Shown piece after piece: positions 4,453 to 29,028 of a stretch of DNA of 53,426 bases (position 1 is its first letter; every line of letters begins with the position of its first letter). Made by a program: the position numbers and the translations under genes. This DNA is from Eubacteriales bacterium (lineage in GTDB: Bacteria > Bacillota > Clostridia > Oscillospirales > Oscillospiraceae). Below the pieces are notes generated by a model. The model saw only the letters and a list, made by a program, of their open reading frames with translations. It made no database searches and had not been told where the DNA came from. The DNA lies in NCBI GenBank assembly GCA_030531595.1, contig JAUNND010000007.1, forward strand, positions 1-53,426, given 5' to 3'.

Positions 4453-4480
4453 TTTATTTTCCTTCTTTCGTTGTACCTCC

Positions 4481-4607
4481 GTAGGGCGGGGGCTTCTATC
4501 GCCCCCCTTTTGTCGGCAAAGCCGACATTTCCCCCGCCGGGGGGAATCTTCCCGCCGAAAGGTCGGTTGTTGTATGGGGTAACGGCGGGAGCAAGCCCCC
4601 GCCCTAC
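4481..4607. repeat. Palindromic GTAGGGCGGGGGC repeat, 127-bp form
   Basis: Sits between the E1 and E3 genes. Its first 83 bases are, by eye, identical to the reverse complement of 6063-6145, so this copy and the one at 6019-6145 form a long inverted pair around the E3 gene. Confidence 0.88.
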
Positions 4608-4613
4608 AGTTTA

Positions 4614-5987
4614 TTAAAGCTTTGCAGCAAAGATGGCTTCCTTTATTATTTCCGCGTAGGTGGGATGCGGGTAGACGTAGGACTTCATTCTGTCAACGGT
4701 CAGCTCGTTTTCGATCATCATCGAGCAGATCGTGATAAGCTCGCTGGCGGGGCCGCCGACTAAGGTAACGCCGATCATGGTGCGCTTTTTCTTATCGAAC
4801 ACAGCTTTAATGATGCCGGTGCCGTTTTCGTTCTCGGCGATGTAGAGACCCGAATACTGGAACGGGAGCTTCACGCCGACAGCGTCAATGCCCTTTGCCT
4901 TTGCACTCTCGACCGTCTCGCCGACAAAGGCTGCCTCCGGCTCGGTGTGCACGAGGGAGGGAACACAGCCCCAGCGCATGGGGTCGTCAATGCCCTGAAT
5001 GTGCTTGACGGCGACCTCGCCCTGACGGTAGGCAACGTGTGCGAGCATACCGGTTCCGTTGCAGTCGCCGATGGCGTAGACGTTGGGAACGCCGGTCAGA
5101 CAGTGCTCGTCCACAAGAATTCTGCCCTTCTCGGTGGGGACATGGAGAGTTTCCAGACCGTAGCCGTCCAAATTGGGTGCTCTGCCGATGCACAGCAGAA
5201 CCTTGTCGCATTTAAGCTCACTGAGCTGTCCGCCGCAGTCGAGCGTGACGACTCCGTTTATGGCGGTTCTTGCCTTTGTGTTCAGATGGAAGGTCATGCC
5301 TAAAGCTTCACAGGCCTTCTGAATAACGGCGGTCGCCTCCGCGTCCAGATCACCGGCGATTTTGGGCGCAGCTTCCACGATATCGACCTTGGTGCCGACC
5401 ATGGCGTAATAGGTCGCCATTTCAAGTCCGATAACGCCGCCGCCGACAACGACCATAGTTTCGGGAACTTCTTCCAGTTCAAGAAGCTCGGTGCTGGTGA
5501 GGACAAAGCCGTCCGCCATAGCATCTGTGAGTCCTTCGGCGTTGGGGATGATGGGATGGGAGCCGGTGGCGAGGATAAGATTTTTGGTGTGGTAGGTCGT
5601 ACCGGCTGCCTCAATGATGATACCGTCGCCGTCGCGGCCGAGGATGTGCCCCTCCGCCTCAACGGTCTTGACCTTGGAGGCCTTGAGTCCTGCTTTAACG
5701 CCCGCAACGAGCTGTGCGGTGACGGCTCTTTTACGTGCAACGACCGCTTTCTGGTCGATGCTCACATTCTCACAGCCTACACAGTAGGTCTGAGAGGTCT
5801 TGCAGGCGTGGAAAAGCTTTGCGCTTTTGAGAAGTGTTTTGGTGGGGATGCAGCCCTCGTTGAGGCAGGTGCCGCCGATGTGCTGCTTTTCGACAAGCAG
5901 AGTTTTCAGCCCCGCCTGTCCTGCGCGTTCCGCGGCGAGATAACCGCCGGGGCCTGCGCCGAATACTGTTACGTCAAAATCAGCCAT
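4614..5987 (-). CDS. lpdA: Dihydrolipoamide dehydrogenase (E3)
   Basis: A 457-residue flavoprotein disulfide reductase that reoxidises the dihydrolipoyl group of E2, giving NADH. The FAD motif GAGPGG is at 10-15, the redox disulfide is C41 and C46 (GGTCLNEGCIPTK), a second nucleotide motif GGGVIGLE is near residue 180, and the C-terminal His-Glu pair is H441 and E446 (HPTYAE). The start at 5987 follows AGAGGT with seven-base spacing; the upstream in-frame extension is translated repeat DNA and was rejected. It lies between E2 and E1 in the operon. A 127-bp palindromic repeat sits on each side in opposite orientation. Confidence 0.92.
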   Translation of the reverse strand: MADFDVTVFGAGPGGYLAAERAGQAGLKTLLVEKQHIGGTCLNEGCIPTKTLLKSAKLFHACKTSQTYCVGCENVSIDQKAVVARKRAVTAQLVAGVKAGLKASKVKTVEAEGHILGRDGDGIIIEAAGTTYHTKNLILATGSHPIIPNAEGLTDAMADGFVLTSTELLELEEVPETMVVVGGGVIGLEMATYYAMVGTKVDIVEAAPKIAGDLDAEATAVIQKACEALGMTFHLNTKARTAINGVVTLDCGGQLSELKCDKVLLCIGRAPNLDGYGLETLHVPTEKGRILVDEHCLTGVPNVYAIGDCNGTGMLAHVAYRQGEVAVKHIQGIDDPMRWGCVPSLVHTEPEAAFVGETVESAKAKGIDAVGVKLPFQYSGLYIAENENGTGIIKAVFDKKKRTMIGVTLVGGPASELITICSMMIENELTVDRMKSYVYPHPTYAEIIKEAIFAAKL

Positions 5988-6018
5988 TATATATACCTCT
6001 TTAAAAATTTGCTGCTCC

Positions 6019-6145
6019 GTAGGGCGGGGGCTTGCTCCCGCCGCGGTATTGCAGAAAGTCCAACCTTTCGGCGGGAAGATTCCCCCCGGCGGGGGAAATG
6101 TCGGCTTTGCCGACAAAAGGGGGGCGATAGAAGCCCCCGCCCTAC
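6019..6145. repeat. Palindromic GTAGGGCGGGGGC repeat, 127-bp form, inverted copy
   Basis: Fills the gap between the E3 and E2 genes. Bases 6063-6145 are the reverse complement of 4481-4563; the remaining third differs between the two copies. Confidence 0.88.
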
Positions 6146-6162
6146 AATTAAAATTGGTAATT

Positions 6163-7389
6163 TTACTCCGCGAGAAGCAGGGTGAAGTTTTCCAGTCTTC
6201 TGCAGAAGTCGTTGAGGAACTGTGCGGCGGGTGCGCCGTCAACGGCTCTGTGGTCGATGGTCAGGCAGATCGCCATGGCGCGGTACATTTCCATTTCGCC
6301 GTCCTTATTGGGGCGAACTCTCCACTCGGGAGAGCCGACGCCGACGATGCAGGTCTGGGGAGGATTGATAACGGGGGTGAAGCTGGAAATATTGTTGTTG
6401 CCGAGATTGGTTACGGTGACGGTGCCGCCGGTGAGCCGGTCGGGAGTGATGGTGTTGTCACGGCAGGCGGCGGACAGAGCCTTTGCCTCGCGGGAGATCA
6501 TGTTGAGGCTCTTGAGGTCGGCGTTTTTAAGAGTGGGAACCATGAGTCCGCGCTCGGTATCGGTGGCAACGCCGAGGTGTACGCGCTTGAAAAGCTTCGT
6601 CTCCTTGTCGGAGAAATGGGCGTTGAAGATGGGGTAATCGAGAACGGTGCGGGAGAGCGCGAACAGGATCATATCGTTGATGGAGATATTGGGATAGCCG
6701 AGCTTTTCGCGGTTTGCCTTGACCATTTCGCGGTATGCAAACAGAGCGGTCGCGTCGAAATACGCGGTGAAGGAGAGCTGTGCCATTTCGGACAGAGAGT
6801 CGTGCATATTCTTGGCAATTACCTTGCGGATGCCGGAGTTCTTGACGACCTCAAATTCGGGTTCCTCAGCGACCTCGACAGCCTTGGCGGTCATGACCTT
6901 CTTGCCGTTCTTTACGAGTTCGGCAATATCGCGCTCGATAACTCTGCCCTCGGCTCCGGTGGGGGCGGCGTCGTGCCAGTCAACACCGGCACGCTCTGCG
7001 GCAGCCTTGGCTCTGGGAGAGGCAAAGCCCTCGTTGTCCTTTACGGGAGCGGGAGCGGCGGTGACGGCAGGAGCGGCTGCGGGGGCTGCTTCTGCCGCAG
7101 GAGCGGCGGCAGGAGCGGCAGCGGCTGCCTCGGGACGCTCAAAGCTCTCCCCGGGCTGACCTATAACGCAGACGGGAGCTTTGATGGGAACATCGTCACC
7201 CTCGGATGCGAAGATAGCTAAAACGGTACCCTCGGCCTCGGACTCTACCTCCAAGGTCGCCTTGCCGTTTTCTACAGAAAAAAGAGGTGCGCCGACCTTG
7301 ACGGCGTCGCCTTCCTTGACTAACCATTCACCGATGACGGCGGATTCCTCCGTCAGACCAAGCTGGGGCATGGTAATAACAGTGCTCAT
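6163..7389 (-). CDS. Dihydrolipoamide acyltransferase (E2) of the 2-oxoacid dehydrogenase complex
   Basis: A 408-residue E2 core subunit. A single lipoyl domain (residues 1-80, lipoyl lysine K43 in ENGKATLE) is followed by an Ala/Pro-rich linker and a peripheral subunit-binding domain (ASPRAKAAAERAGVDW onward). The acyltransferase domain ends with the catalytic DHRAVDG (H380, D384). It carries the acyl group from E1 to coenzyme A. It is the first gene of the leftward operon E2-E3-E1-RpiR-SDR, with the operon promoter and operators directly upstream (7424-7483). The Shine-Dalgarno AAAGGAGAT precedes the ATG. Linker sequence and length are ordinary for the family. Confidence 0.9.
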   Translation of the reverse strand: MSTVITMPQLGLTEESAVIGEWLVKEGDAVKVGAPLFSVENGKATLEVESEAEGTVLAIFASEGDDVPIKAPVCVIGQPGESFERPEAAAAAPAAAPAAEAAPAAAPAVTAAPAPVKDNEGFASPRAKAAAERAGVDWHDAAPTGAEGRVIERDIAELVKNGKKVMTAKAVEVAEEPEFEVVKNSGIRKVIAKNMHDSLSEMAQLSFTAYFDATALFAYREMVKANREKLGYPNISINDMILFALSRTVLDYPIFNAHFSDKETKLFKRVHLGVATDTERGLMVPTLKNADLKSLNMISREAKALSAACRDNTITPDRLTGGTVTVTNLGNNNISSFTPVINPPQTCIVGVGSPEWRVRPNKDGEMEMYRAMAICLTIDHRAVDGAPAAQFLNDFCRRLENFTLLLAE

Positions 7390-7423
7390 GATTATCTCCT
7401 TTAAATAAAAGATTGATGAAACA

Positions 7424-7452
7424 AGTGTACCACCTCTGTAATGAAATTACAA
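7424..7452 (-). promoter_or_regulatory. Promoter of the E2-E3-E1-RpiR-SDR operon
   Basis: On the minus strand, TTGTAA (7452-7447), a 17-bp spacer and TACACT (7429-7424) form a vegetative-type promoter about 35 bp before the E2 start codon. The operator at 7437-7451 covers the -35 box and spacer, so a bound repressor would block polymerase. Confidence 0.7.
7437..7451. promoter_or_regulatory. Operator-like palindrome 1 (probable RpiR site)
   Basis: TGTAATGAAATTACA, perfect six-base arms. It shares the pattern TGTARTGAAAYTACA with 7469-7483, and the centres are 32 bp apart (about three helical turns). The form fits known MurR/RpiR operators. Confidence 0.7.
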
Positions 7453-7468
7453 GAACTTTTTTAATTTT

Positions 7469-7483
7469 TGTAGTGAAACTACA
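7469..7483. promoter_or_regulatory. Operator-like palindrome 2 (probable RpiR site)
   Basis: TGTAGTGAAACTACA, perfect six-base arms, 17 bp from the first palindrome. It also lies just upstream of the rightward promoter at 7500 and so could influence both directions. Confidence 0.7.
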
Positions 7484-7499
7484 TCTTTGCTATCTGCTG

Positions 7500-7528
7500 T
7501 TGAAATTCCCGAAAAACTGTGATATAGT
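7500..7528 (+). promoter_or_regulatory. Promoter of the corrinoid methyltransferase operon
   Basis: TTGAAA, a 17-bp spacer and TATAGT. The expected start near 7535 places the whole MITE at 7545-7705 inside the untranslated leader. Confidence 0.65.
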
Positions 7529-7544
7529 TTGAAATGCAATAATA

Positions 7545-7705
7545 AGGCAATACCGCATAATGCGGCAAGAGCAGATGGCGAGAGAAAATGGGGTCTGATG
7601 AAGGCATTTTTTTGCAGGAATACTTTGTGTATTTCAAGAAAAAATGACAAAATCAGGGCACATTTTATCCGTCAGCTGCCGCAGACGTATTGTGCGGTGT
7701 TGCCG
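7545..7705. repeat. 161-bp TA-flanked MITE, copy 2 (complete)
   Basis: Ends are imperfect inverted repeats (AGGCAATACCGCATAAT against a right end that reads AGGCAACACCGCACAAT in the other copies; here the last base is changed to G). TA lies directly outside both ends, as in Tc1/mariner-IS630-type insertions. There is no coding capacity. It lies in the leader of the 7730 operon. Confidence 0.85.
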
Positions 7706-7729
7706 TAAGTAAACGGACATTCAGTCGAT

Positions 7730-9115
7730 ATGAAATTAAAGCTTACTGCGGAGAGAGAAACACTGCTCTCCGAGGCTCTTAAAAACGCGGGATACCCGGT
7801 CTCCCAGCCATGCGGCGGAAACGGTAAATGCGGGAAATGCACGGTGCTTCTCAACGGGGAACCCGTCAGGGCGTGCTGTACCTGTATCTGCGGTGAAAAC
7901 GAAATAGAACTTGAAGTGCTGTCCGGTGGAAACATCCTCGGCGGCGGGGAGGACATCATTATCCCCGACGCATCTGAAACGGGTCTCGGCGCGGCGGTCG
8001 ACCTCGGTACAACGACCGTGGCGATACGCATTTTTGACCTTGAAACGGGCGCGGTCGTCGCCTCTCGTACCGACTGGAACGCCCAGTCCCCCTACGGAGC
8101 GGACGTTATAAGCCGCATCGACTATATAAATAAGAACAACGCCCTCGATGAACTCAGCGGCGTGATACGCCGTCAGATATTTTCCTTTATCGAACCGTTT
8201 AAGGTAAAGCGTATCTTTCTTGCGGGCAACACAGTCATGCAGCATATTTTCGCGGGGCTTTCCCCCTCGTCCATCGCCGTTGCGCCCTTTACACCCGTGA
8301 CGCTGTTTGAAGACTTTTCGGACGGGCTTAACGGTATCCCCGTCACATACGCCCCCTGCGCGGCGGGCTATGTGGGCGGCGACATCACGGCGGGGCTTCT
8401 CTCTTCCGGAATGAACAGAGCCGAAAAGCCCTCGCTGTTTATCGACATCGGCACGAACGGCGAGATGGGCATAGGAAACAGGGACGGCTTCACCGTCTGC
8501 GCGGTCGCCAGCGGTCCGGCTTTCGAGGGCGCGGAGATAAGCTGCGGTATGCCCGGGCTTGAAGGCGCGGTAAACCACGTATATTCCGAAAACGGAGATA
8601 TAAAATATTCCGTGATCGGTGATGTGCTTCCCAAAGGTATATGCGGCTCGGGGCTTATTGACCTTATAGCGGTCTTGCTGGAAACTGAGGATATAGATAT
8701 TTCCGGCAGGCTTGACGAGACATATTATCTGACCGAAAACGTATACCTCACCGGCGCGGACGTCCGCAAATTACAGCTTGCGAAGGCGGCTGTCAGAGCG
8801 GGAATATCCGTGCTCATGGAGGAGAGCGGTCTTGACTTTGAGGATATAGAGCATCTGTACATAAGCGGCGGCTTCGGAAACTATCTGAACATTGAAAACG
8901 CCGCAAAGATCGATATGCTCCCCGTCGGGCTTGCAGGAAAGACCGTGCTTCTCGGCAACACCTCATTAAAGGGCGCGTCAATGGCTCTTTTAAACGAAAA
9001 AAGCAGGAAAGAGCTTTTTAAGATACAGAAAAAATGCCGCTACACGGAGCTTTCCGGCAGCGGACGTTTCAGCGAGGAATTTATTGAACATATGATGTTG
9101 GGGGAAGAAGAATGA
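7730..9115 (+). CDS. Corrinoid-protein reductive activator (RACo/RamA-like, [2Fe-2S] + ASKHA ATPase)
   Basis: A 461-residue protein that probably uses ATP to drive reduction of inactive cob(II)alamin on its corrinoid partner. The N-terminal ferredoxin-type domain shows a C28-x5-C34-x2-C37 pattern with C49/C50, fitting a plant-type [2Fe-2S] cluster. From about residue 87 an ASKHA domain follows (AVDLGTTTVAIRIFD, IDIGTNGEMGIGN, YISGGFGNYL), the DUF4445 family that includes RACo. Its stop overlaps the next start by four bases (ATGA). The Shine-Dalgarno is weak. The partner is very likely the corrinoid protein at 9964. Family assignment is firm; the partner is inferred from the operon. Confidence 0.88.
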   Translation: MKLKLTAERETLLSEALKNAGYPVSQPCGGNGKCGKCTVLLNGEPVRACCTCICGENEIELEVLSGGNILGGGEDIIIPDASETGLGAAVDLGTTTVAIRIFDLETGAVVASRTDWNAQSPYGADVISRIDYINKNNALDELSGVIRRQIFSFIEPFKVKRIFLAGNTVMQHIFAGLSPSSIAVAPFTPVTLFEDFSDGLNGIPVTYAPCAAGYVGGDITAGLLSSGMNRAEKPSLFIDIGTNGEMGIGNRDGFTVCAVASGPAFEGAEISCGMPGLEGAVNHVYSENGDIKYSVIGDVLPKGICGSGLIDLIAVLLETEDIDISGRLDETYYLTENVYLTGADVRKLQLAKAAVRAGISVLMEESGLDFEDIEHLYISGGFGNYLNIENAAKIDMLPVGLAGKTVLLGNTSLKGASMALLNEKSRKELFKIQKKCRYTELSGSGRFSEEFIEHMMLGEEE

Positions 9116-9960
9116 AAAAATTTACATTGCTTGACGGCGGCAGCGGCACTCTCCTGTGGGACAGGGCGGAACAGTGCGGCATAAAAAAAGACCCCGTGTG
9201 GATCTATAACATTGAGCATCCCGAGCTTGTCGAGTGGCTTGCAAAGCAGTATATCGGCGCGGGCTCGGAGATAATCTTTTCAAACACCTTCAGCGCAAAC
9301 GCCCCGACAGTCGAGAGAGTATGTAAATACTCACCCGAGGAGATCGTGGCGAGAGGCGTGGAGATCGCAAAGAAGGTCGCCGAGGGTACAGGCGTAAAGG
9401 TGTTCTTAGACGTCGGCCCGCTCTCACAGCTCATGGAGCCTTACGGCGACATGGAGGAGGACGAGGCGGAGGAAATTTTTGCACGCCAGATTTTACCCGG
9501 AGTAAAAGCCGGTGCGGACGGGATCATGCTGGAGACCTTCATTGACCTCAATATGCTGAAGGTCGCATTAAAGGTCGCCTGTGAAACGGGGCTTCCGGTG
9601 TTTGCGTCCATGTCCTTTGAAAAGGTCGGCAAGACCATGTTCGGCAACAGCGTAGCGCAGTTTGCGGAGGAAATGCAGGAGTTTCCCATCAAAGCCATCG
9701 GCATGAACTGCTCTGTCGGTCCCGACGCGGCAGTCGATATCATCCGTCAGTTTGCCGAATGTACCTCACTTCCGATAATCGCCAAGCCCAACGCCGGTCT
9801 TCCCGAGCTTGACGACAAGGGCAATGTCATTTCGAACTACACCGCCGAAATGTTTATCTCCCAGCTCTCCCCCGCACTTGACTGCGCATCCTATGTGGGC
9901 GGCTGCTGCGGCACCACCCCCAAGTATATAAAACAGCTTAAAGCAATAAGAGGAGAATAA
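9112..9960 (+). CDS. Homocysteine S-methyltransferase domain protein
   Basis: A 282-residue stand-alone homocysteine methyltransferase (Pfam S-methyl_trans), matching the N-terminal module of MetH. The three zinc-binding cysteines are C200 (GMNCSVGP) and C265-C266 (GGCCGTTP), with an N-terminal LLDGGSGTLL. It would move a methyl group from the corrinoid protein at 9964 to homocysteine, making methionine. It overlaps the activator gene and ends three bases before the corrinoid gene, so the three are almost certainly co-translated. No folate-binding domain is seen here, so the methyl donor to cobalamin must come from elsewhere. Confidence 0.88.
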   Translation: MKKFTLLDGGSGTLLWDRAEQCGIKKDPVWIYNIEHPELVEWLAKQYIGAGSEIIFSNTFSANAPTVERVCKYSPEEIVARGVEIAKKVAEGTGVKVFLDVGPLSQLMEPYGDMEEDEAEEIFARQILPGVKAGADGIMLETFIDLNMLKVALKVACETGLPVFASMSFEKVGKTMFGNSVAQFAEEMQEFPIKAIGMNCSVGPDAAVDIIRQFAECTSLPIIAKPNAGLPELDDKGNVISNYTAEMFISQLSPALDCASYVGGCCGTTPKYIKQLKAIRGE

Positions 9961-9963
9961 AAA

Positions 9964-10596
9964 ATGAGCGAATTACTGGAAAACATCAGCATAAATCTTC
10001 AAAACGGCAAAGCAAAGGTCGTTCAGCAGCTTGTCCGTCAGGCGCTTGACGAGGGCATGGACGCGATGACCGTTTTAGAGCAGGGGCTTCTGCCCGGCAT
10101 GGCGATCATCGGCGAGAAGTTCAAAAACAATGAGGTCTTTGTTCCCGAGGTGCTCGTCAGCGCAAGAGCACTGAACAAGGGCACCGCCATTCTCAAGGAA
10201 AAGCTCGTCGGCGAGGGCTTTGAGGAAAAGGGCACGGTCGTTCTCGGCACCGTCAAGGGCGACCTGCACGACATCGGCAAAAATCTTGTCGGCATGATGA
10301 TGGAGAGCAAGGGCATGAAGGTCATCGACCTCGGCGTTGATGTGGAGGCTGACAAATTCGTCGCCGCCGTCAAGGAAAACAACGCCGATATCGTTGCTCT
10401 CTCCGCTCTGCTGACCACCACCATGGGCGAGATGAAGGGGATCATCGAGGCTGTCAGAGCCGAATGTCCCAACGTGAAATTCATGGTCGGCGGCGCTCCC
10501 GTGAGCGCGGCGTTTGCAGCCACCATCGGCGCGGACGCCTATACCGGCGACGCCACCTCCGCCGCCGCAAAGTGCGTTGAGCTGTGCGCCGGCTGA
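9964..10596 (+). CDS. Corrinoid (cobalamin-binding) methyl-carrier protein
   Basis: A 210-residue protein of the MtaC/MtbC/MttC type. A helical cap (residues 1-85) precedes a Rossmann-like B12 domain with the base-off signature D100-x-H102-x-x-G105 (GDLHDIGKN); H102 is the lower cobalt ligand. It carries the methyl group between a donor enzyme and the homocysteine methyltransferase at 9112. It is the third gene of the operon, with AGAGGAG-type Shine-Dalgarno, and is followed by a clear terminator at 10612. The corresponding region of MetH has the same fold, so the 9112-9964 pair resembles a split MetH. Confidence 0.9.
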   Translation: MSELLENISINLQNGKAKVVQQLVRQALDEGMDAMTVLEQGLLPGMAIIGEKFKNNEVFVPEVLVSARALNKGTAILKEKLVGEGFEEKGTVVLGTVKGDLHDIGKNLVGMMMESKGMKVIDLGVDVEADKFVAAVKENNADIVALSALLTTTMGEMKGIIEAVRAECPNVKFMVGGAPVSAAFAATIGADAYTGDATSAAAKCVELCAG

Positions 10597-10611
10597 TCCT
10601 TCAATATGGGT

Positions 10612-10655
10612 AAAAAAGACGTCTCTTTCGAAAGAAAGGGGCGTCTTTTCTTTAT
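10612..10655 (+). terminator. Terminator of the corrinoid methyltransferase operon
   Basis: AAAAGACG pairs with CGTCTTTT around an inner CTTTCGAAAG stem, followed by a T-rich tail. It ends just before the MITE at 10659. Confidence 0.85.
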
Positions 10656-10658
10656 TTA

Positions 10659-10819
10659 AGGCAATACCGCATAATGCGGCAAAAGCAGATGGCGAGAGAA
10701 AATGGGTTCTGATGAAGGCATTTTTTTGCAGGAATACTTTGTGTATTTCAAGAAAAAATGACAAAATCAGGGCACATTTTATCCGTCAGCTGCCGCAGAC
10801 GTATTGTGCGGTGTTGCCT
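10659..10819. repeat. 161-bp TA-flanked MITE, copy 3 (complete)
   Basis: Same length and orientation as copy 2, differing at about three positions by eye. Both sides carry TA. Its right end codes for the last residues and stop codon of the spoVFB gene. Confidence 0.87.
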
Positions 10820-11390
10820 TAAGTATCGGCTGGAGCTGCCTCCCTTCAAGAGCCGCCCTGACCGTTTCGGAAAGCAGCGAAAAGTCCGACTGGAGTGAGC
10901 GGGGCTTTGTATCCGGTGCGTCCTGCGAAAACGGTACAAAGTAGACGTTCCTTCGGTTTAAGAGCCTGCCGATATTCTCCGCCGAGCCGGAGAGCCCGTC
11001 GTTGGTGGAAAAAGCGATGATAAGAGGTTTTCCATTTCGCAGATGCCCCTTTGCCGCCATCGTCACGGTGCTGTCGGTGATGCCGTTTGCAAGCTTTGCA
11101 AGGGTATTGCCGGTGCAGGGCGCGATCAGAAGTGCGTCCATCGCCCCCTGCGGTCCCAGAGGCTCCGCCTCGGCGATCGTCGTCACTGCGTTTCTGCCGC
11201 ACACTTCCCGTAGCCGACGCAGATGCTCGGCGGCTGTGCCGAAGCGGGTGTCGGTTTCGGCGGCTGTATCGCTCATGATGGGGATGAGCTCAAATTCCTC
11301 CGCAAGTGCTTTAGCTGCGGCAAACAGTTTTCCGTAGGTACAGTAGGAGCCGCACAGAGCCAGCCCCAGCCGCTTTTTTTCATTCTCCAT
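10779..11390 (-). CDS. spoVFB: Dipicolinate synthase subunit B
   Basis: A 203-residue flavoprotein-like subunit (also called DpaB) that with SpoVFA makes dipicolinic acid, the spore-core chelator, in the mother cell. The sequence matches the family from LGLALCGSYCTYGKLF through the phosphate-loop region APCTGNTLAKLANGITDS. The start at 11390 (MENEKK) is chosen over an upstream in-frame ATG because it gives the usual ~200-residue length and overlaps the end of spoVFA by 11 bases. The last ~13 codons and the stop lie inside a MITE (10659-10819), so the original C-terminus has been replaced; the catalytic part appears intact. Confidence 0.88.
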   Translation of the reverse strand: MENEKKRLGLALCGSYCTYGKLFAAAKALAEEFELIPIMSDTAAETDTRFGTAAEHLRRLREVCGRNAVTTIAEAEPLGPQGAMDALLIAPCTGNTLAKLANGITDSTVTMAAKGHLRNGKPLIIAFSTNDGLSGSAENIGRLLNRRNVYFVPFSQDAPDTKPRSLQSDFSLLSETVRAALEGRQLQPILKATPHNTSAAADG

Positions 11391-12174
11391 GATATGCCTC
11401 CATATACGCAAGAATTTCCTTTTCCATAAGCTCTGCCGAGGCGCGTGGCGAAAACCGTCCTGGCAGACCCGGCGCATTGATCACGCACAGCCCCGCTTTT
11501 TCGGCGCTTTCTCTGTCAAAGCCGCCGGGGGCGGAGGCCAGCTCCATAATGACCGCGCCGCGTTTTGCTTTTTCCAACGCCTCTTTTCCGATGATCCGGG
11601 CGGGGACGGTGTTGACTATGTAATCAAACTTCCCAAGCTCCGAAAGCGCCTTTTCCAGAGTGCCGTCCGCTCTCGCCCCCACGGTGACCGAAGTCTCAAA
11701 GGCGTTGAGCCTCTGCCGCAGCGCACTCGCCACACGCCCCGCGCCGAGAATGAGGAGCTTTGAACCGCGCAGTGCTCCGACGCTGCTTTCCGTGAGAAGG
11801 GCAATCGCGCCCTCCGCCGTCAGAGCCGCGTTGCCGAGGGCGAAGCTCTCCGAGCCCAGAAGATCGAAAACAGCGGCATCAGTGCATATCCCGGTCTTTC
11901 CGAAGCCTCCGCAGAGCGTCTGAGCGGGCGTGAGCAGAGAATAAACTTCCTCGGGTGCAATCTTTACCCCGCTCAGCGGAGCATTCACAAAGCCGTTTCT
12001 GACAGACGGGACGCCCAGTATCACGCATTGTGCGTCATTCACACATTCCTCTAATGTATCGCAGCAGCAGACCGCTTTTTCAAGCGCAGAATATTTCACC
12101 TCACTGCCGGTCTTCAATAGCCTTTCGCCGAGGAAAACAGCGCGTTCATCGCCCCCGACAAGGGCAAATATCAT
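11380..12174 (-). CDS. spoVFA: Dipicolinate synthase subunit A
   Basis: A 264-residue NAD(P)-dependent subunit (DpaA). An N-terminal domain begins FALVGGDERAVFLGERL and a second Rossmann domain has LLILGAGRVASALRQRL. It acts in the mother cell during sporulation on the lysine-pathway intermediate dihydroxy-tetrahydrodipicolinate. The start at 12174 is chosen because GGAGG lies eight bases upstream; the ATG two codons earlier would be too close to it. The gene overlaps spoVFB. The pair is strong evidence that the host forms endospores. No confident sigma-K promoter could be picked by eye. Confidence 0.9.
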   Translation of the reverse strand: MIFALVGGDERAVFLGERLLKTGSEVKYSALEKAVCCCDTLEECVNDAQCVILGVPSVRNGFVNAPLSGVKIAPEEVYSLLTPAQTLCGGFGKTGICTDAAVFDLLGSESFALGNAALTAEGAIALLTESSVGALRGSKLLILGAGRVASALRQRLNAFETSVTVGARADGTLEKALSELGKFDYIVNTVPARIIGKEALEKAKRGAVIMELASAPGGFDRESAEKAGLCVINAPGLPGRFSPRASAELMEKEILAYMEAYHGE

Positions 12175-17620: not shown

Positions 17621-18574
17621 ATGTATGATATTATCGCCCTCGGCGAACTGCTGATCGATTTCGCCTGCGTTTCCGCCGATGAAGAAGGTTATCCGACCAT
17701 GGCCGCTCACCCGGGCGGAGCACCGGCGAATTTCCTCGCCGCCGTCAACAAATTCGGAGGCAAAACGGCGCTGCTCGGCAAGGTGGGGACGGACACCTTC
17801 GGAAAGCTCCTGCTCAGAACGCTGAAAAGCAGCGGGATCGACACGAAGGGCATCGTCAGCGCGGACGATGTTTTCACGACTCTCGCTTTTGTGACCTTTG
17901 ACGACTCCGGCGACCGTGAGTTTGCCTTTTCCAGAAAGCCCGGCGCGGATACCCGCCTTTCCTTTGACGAAATCGAGCTCGGCATGATAGACGAGGCAAG
18001 AGCGTTTCATTTCGGCACGCTCAGCCTGACCGACGAGCCGGCGAGAGAGGCGACATATAAAGCCGCGGAATACGCCAAAACTAAAGGAAAGCTGATAACC
18101 TTTGACCCCAATCTGCGAAAGCCCCTCTGGAAAAGCCTCGATGAAGCAAAAACGCAGATGCTCTGGGGGCTGGGCATGGCAGACGTTGTGAAGATCAGTG
18201 ACGATGAGGTCGATTTTCTGTTCGGTCTTTCGCCGGAAGAGGGCGCAAAGTATATTCTGGAGAGCTTCGGTGTGAAGCTCGTGTTCGTCACCTGCGGCGC
18301 GGACGGCTGCTTTTACGCAAATTCGAACGCCCGTGGCTTTGTGCCAGCCATGAAAGGGCTCCATGTGATCGATACCTGCGGCGCAGGGGATATATTCGGC
18401 GGCAGCGCCGTGTGGAAAATGCTGTGCATGGACGTCGGCCCCGAAGAGCTTTCGGACGCGCAGCTTAAAGAGATCGTGACCTTTGCCTGTACGGCCGCGG
18501 GACTGTCCACCGAGAGATCGGGCGGCATTTCAAGCATCCCGGACATGGCAGAGGTGCTGGAAAGAATAAAATAA
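17621..18574 (+). CDS. PfkB-family sugar kinase (fructokinase-like)
   Basis: A 317-residue ribokinase-fold enzyme. The N-terminal signature is GGAPANFLAAVNKFGG (about residues 31-46). The C-terminal signature DTCGAGDIFGG places the catalytic base at D257 and the anion hole at G254-G256. It phosphorylates a sugar with ATP in the cytoplasm; the overall sequence looks like bacterial fructokinases, but fructose as substrate is not proven. It has its own promoter at 17555. The next gene downstream (18652) is the first peptide of the twin-CX3C cluster; no terminator is obvious between them, so read-through is possible. Confidence 0.85.
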   Translation: MYDIIALGELLIDFACVSADEEGYPTMAAHPGGAPANFLAAVNKFGGKTALLGKVGTDTFGKLLLRTLKSSGIDTKGIVSADDVFTTLAFVTFDDSGDREFAFSRKPGADTRLSFDEIELGMIDEARAFHFGTLSLTDEPAREATYKAAEYAKTKGKLITFDPNLRKPLWKSLDEAKTQMLWGLGMADVVKISDDEVDFLFGLSPEEGAKYILESFGVKLVFVTCGADGCFYANSNARGFVPAMKGLHVIDTCGAGDIFGGSAVWKMLCMDVGPEELSDAQLKEIVTFACTAAGLSTERSGGISSIPDMAEVLERIK

Positions 18575-18651: not shown

Positions 18652-18825
18652 ATGGAAAAGATTAAAGCAGAAGAACTTAAAGCTGCTGTTGGCGGCAACA
18701 ATTCTATCGATATCTGCTATGCTCTCTGCTCCTCAAAGGCTCAGCAGGAATTTCTGAACGGAACGGATCCTCAGACCGTTCAGGACAATCTGGTAAGCTG
18801 CAAGGCGAGCTGCGACACTCAGTGA
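18652..18825 (+). CDS. Candidate RiPP precursor peptide 1, GG leader + twin CX3C core
   Basis: A 57-residue peptide. The leader (MEKIKAEELKAAVGG) ends in a double glycine at residues 14-15. The 42-residue core has four cysteines only, as two CX3C pairs: C22/C26 (CYALC) and C50/C54 (CKASC), separated by 23 residues. The leader start is nearly the same as in the peptide at 20462 (M-x-K-I-x-A-E-E-L-K). AAGGACGG precedes the ATG. GG leaders are normally cut by C39-peptidase ABC exporters; none lies in this window. The twin CX3C spacing suggests a helical hairpin held by two disulfides. I do not recognise a named family; reading it as a ribosomal peptide product is inference. Confidence 0.65.
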   Translation: MEKIKAEELKAAVGGNNSIDICYALCSSKAQQEFLNGTDPQTVQDNLVSCKASCDTQ

Positions 18826-18843
18826 GCCAACAGGGACGGTTCT

Positions 18844-18946
18844 CAATGGCAGTAAGTTAGCGTTTTCAAATGTAGGGCGGGGGCTCGCTCCCGCCGCAAC
18901 CGCACGGGAACTCCGACTTTCCGGCGGGAGACAGCCGGCGCCCTAC
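18844..18946. repeat. Palindromic GTAGGGCGGGGGC repeat with one outer CAATG arm
   Basis: The core palindrome is 18872-18946. On its left is CAATGGCAGTAAGTTAGC, the same outer arm seen at 34329; no matching right arm is visible. It sits between peptide 1 and the thioredoxin-desulfurase fusion gene. Confidence 0.75.
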
Positions 18947-18966
18947 GATTATATAGAGAAGAAATT

Positions 18967-20448
18967 ATGCACGAATTTTTAAAGATCACGCCGGAAAATC
19001 ACGAGCAGGCAATTCGTGAGATCGCTGGAAAACTGTATATTTTATATTTCAGTAAGGACTGTGTTTTCTGTCGGGAGGCCATTGCCAACCTTATCAATAT
19101 GCCGGAAAACTCGCTGTTCACCTACGCCGTGTGTCAGGTGGACGATGAAAAGGACTTTCGCATGAAGGAAAACCTGCTGTCCCTGCCCACCTTCCGCGTC
19201 TACGAAAACGGTGAGAAGATACGCGAGACAAACGGCTATAACCAGACCTACGGCGTTAATTACGATATGCGCGGCAGCATCGAGCGGTGCGAAAACTATC
19301 ACACCGTCTATGCCGACAATGCCGCGACCACGAAGATGTCAAAAAAGGCGCTCAAAGCCTTTGTCGACTGCGCAAAGGACAACTACGGCAACCCCTCCAC
19401 CAATTATGAGCTCGGGCAGAAAGCAAAAGGGACTCTCAGATTCGCGAGAGCGGTCATGCGCGAGACGCTGCATCTGAAAAAGCACAGCGTCATTTTCACC
19501 GGCGGAGGCAGTGAGGCGGACAATCAGGCGTTGTATTCCGCCTATAAAGAGGGCATCAAACAGAACAGAAAGCACATGATCACCTCCGCCATCGAGCACC
19601 ACGCCGTTTTGCACACGCTGGAGAGCTTCAAGGATGACGGCTTTGAGATCACCGTTCTCCCCGTAAACGAAAAGGGTCTTGTCGAGCTGAAAACGCTGAA
19701 AAAGGCGATAAGACCGGATACGATCCTTGTCAGCATCATGTACGCCAACAACGAGATCGGCACGATCCAGCCCGTCAAGGCAATCGGCGAGCTGTGCAAA
19801 AAACATAATGTACTCTTCCACTGCGATGCGGTGCAGGCGGTCGGTCATGTCAATATCGATCTTTCCAAACTGAATATAGATTATCTCTCCGTCGCCGCGC
19901 ACAAGTTCAACGGACCGAAAGGGGTCGGTGCGCTGATCGTCGCGGAGACCGCCCCCGTTTCTTCCCTCATTCTCGGCGGCGGACAGGAAAACGCCCGACG
20001 TGCCGGTACGGAGAACGTGCAGGGCATATGCGCGATGGCAACGGCATTGCAGGAGCATACAAAGCATTTAAGACGCGACACGAAAAAGACAAAAGAGCTG
20101 ATGAACGCTCTGCTGGCGGGCTTAAACGAGATACCCGAAATCGTTTTCAACGGCGATGCGGTAAAGCGTCTGCCAGGCACGGTCAATGTCTCCTTTAAAA
20201 ATGTCCGCGGGCGGGAGCTGCTTTTCTTGCTTGATGCGAAATACGGCATATGTGTCTCCGGCGGCTCGGCGTGCAATACCAACTCCAAAAAGCCCAGCCA
20301 CGTCCTGCTCGCCCTCGGTCTCAGTGAGGAGCTGGCGGAATCGACAGTGCGCATTTCCCTCAATCAGGACAATTCTATGGAGGATGTGGAGTATATCCTT
20401 AAAGCCCTCAAAGAGAGCGTGGCGTATTTGAGAGAAAGGAACAATTAA
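18967..20448 (+). CDS. Thioredoxin-like domain fused to NifS/IscS-type cysteine desulfurase
   Basis: A 493-residue fusion. Residues 1-105 look like a thioredoxin fold with a C32-V-F-C35 active site and a LPTFRVYENGEKI strand. Residues about 115-490 are a PLP-dependent class V desulfurase beginning YADNAATTKMSKKAL, with the PLP lysine K313 (AAHKFNGPKG) and the sulfur-carrying C436 (GGSACNTNSKKPS). It should take sulfur from cysteine as a persulfide; the thioredoxin domain could reduce that persulfide or a peptide disulfide. It lies between two GG-leader twin-CX3C peptides, the second only 13 bp downstream. No IscU or tRNA-thiolation partner is nearby, so ordinary Fe-S or tRNA service is less likely than a role tied to the peptides. 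The pairing is inference. Confidence 0.85.
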   Translation: MHEFLKITPENHEQAIREIAGKLYILYFSKDCVFCREAIANLINMPENSLFTYAVCQVDDEKDFRMKENLLSLPTFRVYENGEKIRETNGYNQTYGVNYDMRGSIERCENYHTVYADNAATTKMSKKALKAFVDCAKDNYGNPSTNYELGQKAKGTLRFARAVMRETLHLKKHSVIFTGGGSEADNQALYSAYKEGIKQNRKHMITSAIEHHAVLHTLESFKDDGFEITVLPVNEKGLVELKTLKKAIRPDTILVSIMYANNEIGTIQPVKAIGELCKKHNVLFHCDAVQAVGHVNIDLSKLNIDYLSVAAHKFNGPKGVGALIVAETAPVSSLILGGGQENARRAGTENVQGICAMATALQEHTKHLRRDTKKTKELMNALLAGLNEIPEIVFNGDAVKRLPGTVNVSFKNVRGRELLFLLDAKYGICVSGGSACNTNSKKPSHVLLALGLSEELAESTVRISLNQDNSMEDVEYILKALKESVAYLRERNN

Positions 20449-20461
20449 GAAGGGCGTAAAA

Positions 20462-20662
20462 ATGGGAAAAATTACAGCGGAAGAATTAAAGACGGAGCTG
20501 ACCGGCGAAGCACTGAGCGACGACGAGCTGGAGCAGGTCTCCGGCGGCATGATGACTATGAAATACTGTCACGATCAATGCGACAGAAAATTTTCCAAAT
20601 TCTTTCAGCGGGCAGAGAAAAACAAATGTTATCGGGAATGTGCTCTGGAATTCAGAGGATGA
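20462..20662 (+). CDS. Candidate RiPP precursor peptide 2, GG leader + twin CX3C core
   Basis: A 66-residue peptide with a classical double-glycine leader (ALSDDELEQVSGG, cleavage expected after G29). The 37-residue basic core has two CX3C pairs: C36/C40 (CHDQC) and C56/C60 (CYREC), 15 residues apart. No other cysteines are present. Its start is 13 bp after the desulfurase stop with AAGGGCG before the ATG, so co-transcription is almost certain. Compared with peptide 1 the leader start and cysteine pattern are kept while the rest differs, as in families of leader peptides with variable cores. Alternative: a small metal- or redox-binding protein. Confidence 0.75.
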   Translation: MGKITAEELKTELTGEALSDDELEQVSGGMMTMKYCHDQCDRKFSKFFQRAEKNKCYRECALEFRG

Positions 20663-20710: not shown

Positions 20711-21202
20711 ATGAAAAAGTTAAAAGCCGAAAAACTGACATTGGAGGCATTTGCGCCGTTCGGAGAATTCTTTTCCTTCTCCGAGCCGACGGGATATTCC
20801 CTCAACGGCGCACTGCACAGATTCTATCCCGACCGCATTCTGTCAAACGTCACGGGAAATATGGGAATGTCCCCCATCCATGTGAAAAAGCCCGAAAAAT
20901 ACCTTGTCACACAGCAGGAATACCATACGACTACCGCCGAGGTCATTTTCCCGTTCAATGACGATATGCTGCTGCACGTTGCCCCACGCACGGCGGGAGT
21001 CGTGGCGAACGAATACGCAAAAGCGTTCATCGTGCCGAAAAACACCATGGTGAAGCTCTATGCCGGCGTGTGGCATCTCGCTCCTCTGCCGGTGCACGAA
21101 CAGGAGCTGCAGGCAGTCATCATCCTGCCAGAGTGCACCTATGCAAACGACTGCACCGTCGTGGATCTCCCCGAAGACCAGCAGTTTGAGATCGTTCTCT
21201 GA
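20711..21202 (+). CDS. Ureidoglycolate lyase-like cupin (AllA/DUF4867 type)
   Basis: A 163-residue beta-barrel protein resembling the AllA ureidoglycolate lyase group: LEAFAPFGEFF near the start, AEVIFPFNDDMLLHVAP in the middle, AGVWHLAPLPV near the end. In true ureidoglycolate lyases this fold releases urea from ureidoglycolate, but no allantoin genes are nearby, so the reaction is uncertain. AGGAGAGG precedes the ATG. It follows peptide 2 by 48 bp in the same direction and may be part of the same transcript; whether it belongs functionally to the peptide cluster is unknown. Confidence 0.65.
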   Translation: MKKLKAEKLTLEAFAPFGEFFSFSEPTGYSLNGALHRFYPDRILSNVTGNMGMSPIHVKKPEKYLVTQQEYHTTTAEVIFPFNDDMLLHVAPRTAGVVANEYAKAFIVPKNTMVKLYAGVWHLAPLPVHEQELQAVIILPECTYANDCTVVDLPEDQQFEIVL

Positions 21203-28894: not shown

Positions 28895-29028
28895 CAATGT
28901 CATTTAGTTAATGATTTTTCACTGTAGGGCGGGGGCTTGCTCCCGCCGAAAAGCCGACGTATATATTACGTTACGGTGGGAGCAAGCCCCCGCCCTACGG
29001 ACGCAGTTTTCTTACCTTAATGACATTG
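28895..29028. repeat. Composite repeat: outer CAATG arms around a GTAGGGCGGGGGC palindrome
   Basis: Outer ends CAATGTCATTTAGTTAA and its imperfect inverse (29012-29028) enclose the palindrome 28924-28998. TGTTTTTAT on the left and TGTTTTTTTAT on the right look like a target duplication with slippage. Confidence 0.75.

What the first reader, a model, noticed from the sequence alone, without database searches (positions are those of the whole stretch)
18652..20662. Twin-CX3C double-glycine peptides around a thioredoxin-desulfurase: candidate new peptide system
Two short genes (57 and 66 codons) share a leader start (M-x-K-I-x-A-E-E-L-K) and a GG cleavage signal. Their cores each have exactly four cysteines arranged CX3C-n-CX3C (spacers 23 and 15). 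Between them lies a thioredoxin-like/NifS-type fusion, 13 bp from the second peptide. Twin CX3C is the pattern of disulfide-locked helical hairpins, and a GG leader points to processing and export. A desulfurase as the only enzyme, instead of a lanthionine synthetase or radical SAM protein, would be unusual. It could build persulfide or thio groups on the core, or set its disulfides. I know of no described class with this make-up.
Basis: partly seen in the sequence, partly recalled or inferred. Interest (0 to 1): 0.9.

Follow-up and report, generated by a model that had tools for sequence, protein, structure and literature searches.

The report
Cysteine-paired peptides with sulfur-transfer enzyme
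Two small, probably exported bacterial peptides with evenly paired cysteines flank an unusual sulfur-handling fusion enzyme, and the one relative found with the enzyme carries such peptides beside it too, which hints at a little-known way to lock or decorate peptides with sulfur.

Summary
Peptide genes at 18652-18825 and 20462-20662 flank a 493-residue thioredoxin (CVFC)-cysteine desulfurase fusion (18967-20448). Both cores have exactly four cysteines as CX3C-n-CX3C (n = 23, 15). The fusion is very rare: 2 of 102 genus genomes; no further carrier in overlapping samples of 394 order, 391 class and 300 family genomes or in a pattern-limited scan of the genome collection. The second carrier (82% identity, different neighbours) has twin-CX3C GG-leader peptides 0.28 and 1.3 kb from the fusion and one on another contig. 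Twin CX3C occurs in 4 of 18 GG-leader matches from the two fusion genomes and 0 of 37 from others. The fusion is under purifying selection (dN/dS about 0.07), keeps its catalytic residues, and is distinct from a second, NifS-like gene next to a NifU-like one. Weak points: two genomes only, no linked exporter, G001 peptides that break the cysteine rule, no chemistry. Best reading: exported cysteine-hairpin peptides whose thiols the fusion oxidises by transpersulfidation. Closest known: gallocin-A-type disulfide-hairpin bacteriocins and Nif11/double-glycine peptides. New variant of a known kind; possibly a new class.

The parts
18652..18825 (+). pep1: 57-aa peptide, short GG leader (15 residues), core CX3C-23-CX3C with exactly four Cys; the spacer's only Gly/Pro residues lie in NGTDP at its centre (9-5-9)
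   Evidence: no family match
18850..18965 (.). stretch with a dispersed palindromic repeat (REP-like) between pep1 and the fusion; probably not part of the system
   Evidence: (73 matches in own genome)
18967..20448 (+). thioredoxin (CVFC)-NifS/IscS-type cysteine desulfurase fusion, 493 aa; K313 (PLP) and C436 (persulfide) conserved
   Evidence: families; alignment to a solved cysteine desulfurase; dN/dS; tree
20462..20662 (+). pep2: 66-aa peptide, bacteriocin/Nif11-type GG leader (29 residues), core CX3C-15-CX3C with exactly four Cys; 13 bp after the fusion
   Evidence: (TIGR01847 17.1 bits over cut-off 15.7; Nif11 leader 21.1 bits under cut-off 32.3)
17621..18574 (+). pfkB-family sugar kinase upstream; ordinary neighbour
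   Evidence: PF00294, 174 bits
20711..21202 (+). ureidoglycolate-lyase/DUF4867-like protein downstream of pep2; probably an ordinary neighbour (no counterpart seen among the ORFs of the G001 contig)

Best explanation
A small peptide-maturation locus. The two peptides are made with double-glycine leaders and are probably cut and exported by the NHLP-type peptidase/ABC transporters encoded elsewhere in the genome (inferred). Their cores are probably short helical hairpins that bring two CX3C pairs face to face (inferred from spacing and from gallocin A). The fusion takes sulfane sulfur from L-cysteine onto C436 (inferred from conserved residues), passes it to the CVFC thioredoxin domain, and on to the peptide thiols. 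A persulfidated peptide Cys attacked by its partner gives a disulfide and H2S, so L-cysteine serves as an oxygen-free oxidant that closes the hairpin's two disulfides in what is probably an anaerobe (inferred). Shown: gene order, domains, recurrence in a second genome, purifying selection on the fusion, restricted distribution. Inferred: export, hairpin fold, substrate relationship, chemistry.
For: Co-occurrence: fusion in 2 of 102 genus genomes. Strong leader matches (E < 1e-10) in the same two of 102 genomes; three of those four matches are rows of the search profile itself, the fourth (G001:C69) is new. Of 2365 small ORFs in 115 fetched loci (about 645 kb, partly overlapping, six duplicate loci not scanned), 9 had twin CX3C and 5 of these a GG upstream, all five in the two fusion genomes. 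Among GG-leader matches 4 of 18 in the fusion genomes and 0 of 37 in others are twin CX3C (by eye 3 of the 18 and 2 of the 37 are spurious; pep1's short leader escapes that pattern). The G001 fusion has unrelated neighbours (VapE-like, sigma-70 region 4, cyclase), so the pairing is not plain synteny. Fusion dN 0.117, dS 1.61; Trx part 0.10 and 2.66, the latter saturated. Own genome has a separate NifS-type gene next to a NifU-like gene, and the two fused desulfurases form a long separate branch, 100/100. Precedents: a bacterial desulfurase-rhodanese fusion drives cysteine-dependent oxidation of roGFP2 by transpersulfidation (PMC8931425, section 11 read); gallocin A peptides have GG leaders and disulfide-locked helical hairpins, and loss of a thioredoxin-domain protein weakens them (PMC10100652, passages); a glycocin locus has nested disulfides and two thioredoxin-like proteins (PMC12457901, passages).
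Against: Only two genomes, same genus. No linked exporter and no immunity gene recognised. In gallocin A the thioredoxin-domain protein is predicted extracellular and no desulfurase is mentioned in the passages seen, so disulfides can form without one. A two-cysteine thioredoxin is expected to release H2S rather than pass sulfur on (PMC11763069, section 3.3 read). G001 has GG peptides that break the cysteine rule: the MEKITKEEF peptide with CX2C...CX4C (L084 2323-2547), Nif11-leader peptides with 0-2 Cys in the core, and a doubtful GTG-start, GG-containing frame without core Cys directly between a twin-CX3C gene and the fusion (L031 8025-8198). Two of the five twin-CX3C cores have five or six Cys. 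One twin-CX3C peptide is on another contig (G001:C69).
Confidence: 0.38

Rival explanations
1. Sulfur incorporation: the fusion installs sulfane sulfur that stays in the product, giving persulfide, trisulfide or polysulfide bridges between the CX3C pairs; a new kind of RiPP modification.
For: Same association evidence as the best explanation. Among the neighbours scanned with Pfam, the fusion is the only candidate modifying enzyme in both genomes (not every ORF was scanned). The window's own genome has no YcaO match, so thioamidation by the usual route is unlikely there.
Against: Thioredoxin domains normally reduce such bonds; persulfides are labile; the papers listed show no precedent by title or abstract start. 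G001 does have two YcaO matches.
Confidence: 0.17
2. Metal-sulfide peptide: the four cysteines bind an iron-sulfur or other metal-sulfide cluster for which the fusion supplies sulfide.
For: NifS-type enzymes feed Fe-S scaffolds (established knowledge); four Cys per core is the right number for one cluster; a thioredoxin domain could release sulfide efficiently (PMC11763069, section 3.3).
Against: No NifU-type scaffold noticed among the ORFs beside the fusion in either genome (by eye and Pfam for part of them); exporters would have to carry a cluster-loaded peptide; two cores have five or six Cys.
Confidence: 0.1
3. The fusion does not act on the peptides: it is an accessory cysteine desulfurase for H2S production, redox defence or an unknown target, and the peptides are ordinary bacteriocin-like peptides, unmodified or oxidised after export, that share an accessory region with it.
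For: Only two genomes; the G001 locus lies next to mobile-element-type genes (VapE-like, AAA/DUF4143); a dispersed repeat separates pep1 from the fusion; gallocin A shows that GG hairpin peptides get disulfides with an extracellular thioredoxin-like helper; no physical or chemical test exists.
Against: Recurrent proximity in two different settings and co-occurrence of leader, motif and fusion.
Confidence: 0.28
4. Sulfur donor for DNA phosphorothioation (DndA/SspA-like).
For: PADLOC SspA and DndA models score 437 and 434 bits, but ordinary NifS/IscS proteins are expected to score high on these models too (not tested).
Against: NCBIfam DndA 330 bits against cut-off 480; no DndC match in own genome (genome 92% complete). 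Ssp partners were not searched.
Confidence: 0.02

Closest known systems
Gallocin A and similar disulfide-hairpin class IIb bacteriocins (PMC10100652, passages read)
   Same: Two small peptides with double-glycine leaders; mature peptides modelled as alpha-helical hairpins with a disulfide shown by mass; a thioredoxin-domain protein in the locus needed for full activity.
   Different: Two Cys and one disulfide per peptide, not twin CX3C; the thioredoxin-domain protein is a predicted surface protein, not fused to a desulfurase; linked exporter and immunity gene. No sequence comparison was made; the peptides here did not match the bacteriocin families of Pfam above cut-off.
Nif11-derived and other double-glycine peptides with NHLP exporters (Haft et al. 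2010, PMC2887384, passages read)
   Same: GG leader; several divergent cores under one conserved leader; true Nif11-leader peptides interleaved in G001; NHLP-type ABC1/ABC2 exporters in both genomes.
   Different: Leader scores below the Nif11 cut-off; the exporter is unlinked; the neighbouring enzyme is a thioredoxin-desulfurase, not LanM or TOMM machinery; twin CX3C cores.
Glycocins such as sublancin, glycocin F and thermoglycocin (PMC12457901, passages read)
   Same: Small peptide; two nested disulfides; thioredoxin-like proteins in the cluster. That two CXnC pairs lie on a helical hairpin is recalled.
   Different: No glycosyltransferase among the neighbours scanned; CX3C instead of CX6C (CX6C recalled); the thioredoxin domain is fused to a desulfurase.
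Cysteine desulfurase fusions: CD-rhodanese and CD-MOSC (plant ABA3) (PMC8931425, section 11 read)
   Same: Desulfurase fused to a domain that accepts or uses sulfur.
   Different: Here the partner domain is an N-terminal thioredoxin and the gene sits between peptide genes. The papers listed did not show a described Trx-desulfurase fusion.
Twin-CX3C helical hairpins: small Tim proteins (PMC3759932, search listing only) and plant alpha-hairpinins (recalled)
   Same: CX3C-n-CX3C spacing of disulfide-locked helical hairpins.
   Different: Eukaryotic; no GG leader; convergent at best.

Membership tests
Nif11-like leader peptides (TIGR03798) | Score above the curated cut-off of 32.3 bits | tested here: not met
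   pep2 21.1 bits, pep1 no match. The neighbouring G001 peptide L031 8474-8908 scores 32.2 on its own and is listed as over the cut-off in the genome search (33.6)
Bacteriocin-type double-glycine leader (TIGR01847) | Score above the cut-off of 15.7 bits | tested here: met
   pep2 17.1 bits at residues 17-29; pep1 not matched
Double-glycine exported peptides | Peptidase C39 exporter that cuts at GG | tested here: inconclusive
   Own genome has one C39 match, NHLM_ABC1 931 bits over cut-off 853, with ABC2 just under cut-off, on another contig; 23 of 60 related genomes have a C39 match, so it is not specific; cleavage not testable
Disulfide-hairpin class IIb bacteriocins (gallocin A type) | Helical hairpin closed by a disulfide | not testable with these tools
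   Structure prediction switched off; no comparison with gallocin sequences was made
IscS-subfamily cysteine desulfurase (NF002806) | Score above the cut-off of 304 bits; PLP Lys and catalytic Cys present | tested here: met
   309.1 bits; K313 and C436 align with the AHK and GSAC motifs of a solved desulfurase
NifS equivalog (TIGR03402) | Score above the cut-off of 530.75 bits | tested here: not met
   433.2 bits
Thioredoxin (PF00085) | Score above the cut-off of 23.5 bits; CXXC | tested here: met
   24.8 bits, residues 5-94, CVFC
Glycocins | Dedicated glycosyltransferase in the locus | tested here: not met
   No glycosyltransferase among the Pfam-scanned neighbours of either fusion; not every ORF was scanned
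Dnd desulfurase | DndC partner in the genome | tested here: not met
   0 matches to TIGR03183 in own genome
YcaO-dependent thioamide or azole RiPP | YcaO in the producing genome | tested here: not met
   0 matches in own genome, 2 in G001, both on contig C39

The most novel reading that the evidence does not exclude
A new class of ribosomal peptide in which a thioredoxin-cysteine desulfurase, the sole maturase, writes sulfur chemistry (disulfides driven by L-cysteine sulfane sulfur, or retained per- or trisulfides) onto twin-CX3C helical-hairpin cores before export.
Probability: 0.3. Interest if true: 0.87.

Novelty: new variant of a known kind. Interest (0 to 1): 0.57.

Why it matters
If the fusion acts on the peptides, cysteine desulfurases, so far known as sulfur suppliers for cofactors, tRNA and DNA, would become peptide-maturation enzymes. 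An anaerobe would also have an oxygen-free way to make disulfides in the cytoplasm from L-cysteine alone. The system is tiny (one enzyme, 57- and 66-residue substrates), so it can be tested by co-expression and mass spectrometry.

Tried and rejected
Linked exporter: none near the fusion in either genome; exporters are on other contigs. Wider family: alignment A2 (Trx part of the two fusions) found no further fusion in 394 order, 391 class and 300 family genomes (the samples overlap and all include the window's own genome, the last also G001); every other listed match has an open frame of 102-158 aa, i.e. stand-alone thioredoxin size. The genome-collection scan gave 3 loci, all stand-alone thioredoxins with open frames of 106-118 residues; it did not return G001 either, and such records may be left out. 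No fusion in viral contigs or phages (0 of 56 records covered to 80%). Plasmids: 5 of 480 records covered to 80% or more; the one of these visible among 60 rows starts at residue 98, the others were not seen, and the thioredoxin part alone has no plasmid match at E 0.01. The contig scans use a few short exact patterns, so distant fusions could be missed. Leader A5 in 295 order genomes: only the window's genome and one Nif11-type peptide with no Cys in its core. DNA phosphorothioation and YcaO chemistry were set aside. Consensus promoters and terminators were uninformative. Structure prediction could not be run, so no fold search was done.
Full report
What is there. The window holds a pfkB kinase (17621-18574), pep1 (18652-18825), the fusion (18967-20448), pep2 (20462-20662) and a ureidoglycolate-lyase/DUF4867-like gene (20711-21202), all on the + strand. 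The fusion has a thioredoxin domain (PF00085, residues 5-94, CVFC) and a class-V aminotransferase domain (residues 114-476). It passes the IscS-subfamily cut-off of NF002806 (309.1 against 304 bits) but not the NifS equivalog (433 against 531). Alignment to a solved desulfurase keeps the PLP lysine (K313) and the catalytic cysteine (C436). Both peptides have GG and exactly four cysteines as CX3C-n-CX3C.

More than chance. Random placement of each core's cysteines gives twin CX3C with P = 0.005 and 0.006 for the two window cores, which suggested the motif, and 0.009, 0.054 and 0.035 for three cores found later in G001. In 115 fetched loci (about 645 kb, partly overlapping; six duplicate loci were not scanned), 9 of 2365 small ORFs have twin CX3C; 5 of the 9 have a GG upstream, and all five come from the two fusion genomes. 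With a stricter GG-leader pattern, 4 of 18 matches in the fusion genomes and 0 of 37 in other genomes are twin CX3C. By eye three of the 18 (two transporter fragments, one antisense frame) and two of the 37 (a thioredoxin and an antisense-looking frame) are spurious; pep1 is missed by that pattern. The loci were fetched because of leader, exporter, thioredoxin or desulfurase hits, so they are not a random sample.

Recurrence. In 40 genomes one other, G001, had a full-length homologue (82% identity; G001:C22). In 102 genomes of the genus the fused thioredoxin part is in G000 and G001 only. G001 has a twin-CX3C peptide about 0.28 kb upstream of the fusion on the same strand (L031 8210-8380, CX3C-8-CX3C, four Cys) and another 1.3 kb upstream, divergent (L031 9243-9473, CX3C-12-CX3C, six Cys), with a Nif11-leader peptide between them (L031 8474-8908). 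A third, CX3C-8-CX3C with five Cys, lies on contig C69 (L084 1645-1830) among three more Nif11-leader peptides. Against a strict rule: a peptide with a similar MEKITKEEF start on C69 has CX2C...CX4C (L084 2323-2547), the Nif11-leader peptides nearby have 0-2 core Cys, and a GTG-start frame with a GG motif and no core Cys lies directly between the first twin-CX3C gene and the fusion (L031 8025-8198), though without a clear ribosome-binding site. The G001 neighbours are unrelated to those of the window: VapE-like, sigma-70 region 4, cyclase, HTH, AAA/DUF4143. Strong leader matches (E below 1e-10) occur only in G000 and G001 among 102 genomes; three of these four are rows of the profile used, the C69 one is new. 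Outside the genus no fusion appeared in samples of 394 order, 391 class and 300 family genomes or in the scans of genome, viral, plasmid and phage collections, within their limits.

Selection and ancestry. Between the two fusions dN = 0.117 and dS = 1.61; the thioredoxin part alone 0.10 and 2.66, where synonymous sites are saturated. Leaders of the G001 paralogues show dN 0.09-0.13 and dS 0.24-0.51, from only 29 codons each; pep2 against them dN 0.41-0.49 and dS 0.99-1.53. The two fused desulfurases form a long separate branch (2.4 changes per site, 100/100) apart from the 31 other desulfurases in the tree (33 rows; long branches, so its exact place is unsure). The window's genome has another NifS-type gene followed by a NifU-like gene on contig C15 (the NifU name is read from the sequence, not from a search). 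So the fusion is an extra, specialised enzyme.

Export. No exporter is linked. The window's genome has one C39 peptidase match, an NHLP-type ABC1 (931 bits over cut-off 853), beside an ABC2 (701, just under 709) and a short HlyD-like piece, on contig C88. G001 has an ABC1/ABC2 pair over both cut-offs and a second pair under both. Exporters are not specific to fusion carriers: 23 of 60 genomes have a C39 match. The only Nif11-leader match at E 0.01 in the window's own genome is pep2 itself, below cut-off.

How it may work. CX3C puts two cysteines on one face of a helix, and two such pairs can be closed as a nested disulfide hairpin, as in small Tim proteins and alpha-hairpinins (recalled). In pep1 the only Gly/Pro residues between the pairs sit in a five-residue stretch at the exact centre (9-5-9). 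Bacterial precedents exist for the fold and the helper: gallocin A peptides have GG leaders, a disulfide each and modelled helical hairpins, and losing a thioredoxin-domain surface protein weakens them (PMC10100652, passages); thermoglycocin has nested disulfides and two thioredoxin-like proteins in its cluster (PMC12457901, passages). The sulfur step rests on one precedent: a natural desulfurase-rhodanese fusion that oxidises roGFP2 in a cysteine-dependent way through transpersulfidation (PMC8931425, section 11). The same reaction on a facing cysteine pair would leave a disulfide and release H2S. Against this, two-cysteine thioredoxins are expected to release H2S rather than hand sulfur on (PMC11763069, section 3.3), which would favour a sulfide-supplying or reducing role, and gallocin A manages with an extracellular helper. 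None of these steps is shown for this system.

Alternatives. Retained sulfur (per- or trisulfide), a metal-sulfide peptide, and no functional link are kept as rivals. DNA phosphorothioation is unlikely because DndC was not found, and YcaO chemistry because the window's genome has no YcaO match, with the caveat that the draft genome is 92% complete.

Literature. Ten full-text searches of the open-access library were run; long result lists were seen only in their top 10-15 rows. By titles and abstract starts, none of the listed papers describes a thioredoxin-desulfurase fusion beside GG peptides. Five papers were opened: PMC8931425 (passages and section 11), PMC12457901, PMC2887384 and PMC10100652 (passages), PMC11763069 (outline and section 3.3). 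Subscription papers and preprints were not searched.

Verdict. The leap to a new chemistry is plausible but unproven. I file it as a new variant of a known kind (double-glycine, cysteine-rich exported peptides, nearest in plan to gallocin-A-type hairpins) with a new enzyme partner.

Noticed in passing
window 18872-18947, also 951-1024, 4582-4607, 6019-6044, 28924-28998: A dispersed palindromic repeat (GTAGGGCGGGGGCTCGCTCCCGCCG type): 7 matches to its core in the window and 73 matches to the 116-base stretch in the genome, both strands counted.
   Followed up: partly
L042 (G001:C39:9001-28000), 2226-11805, - strand: A RiPP-like locus in G001: DUF4135 (LanM-type) protein, Nif11 peptide, ABC1/ABC2-like exporter pair and a YcaO protein; a second YcaO match lies on the same contig.
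   Followed up: partly
L088 and L089 (G015:C87 and C76): Clustered families of GG-leader peptides (MENKKxK...LNDELLDKVSGG and MKLTGKLK... types), several with closely spaced Cys pairs resembling zinc ribbons.
   Followed up: no
L084 2323-2547 (G001:C69): A peptide with a leader start like that of the twin-CX3C set but a CX2C...CX4C core; no Pfam match.
   Followed up: partly
L039 13177-13863 (G000:C88): A 228-aa protein near the NHLP-type exporter with no NCBIfam match.
   Followed up: no
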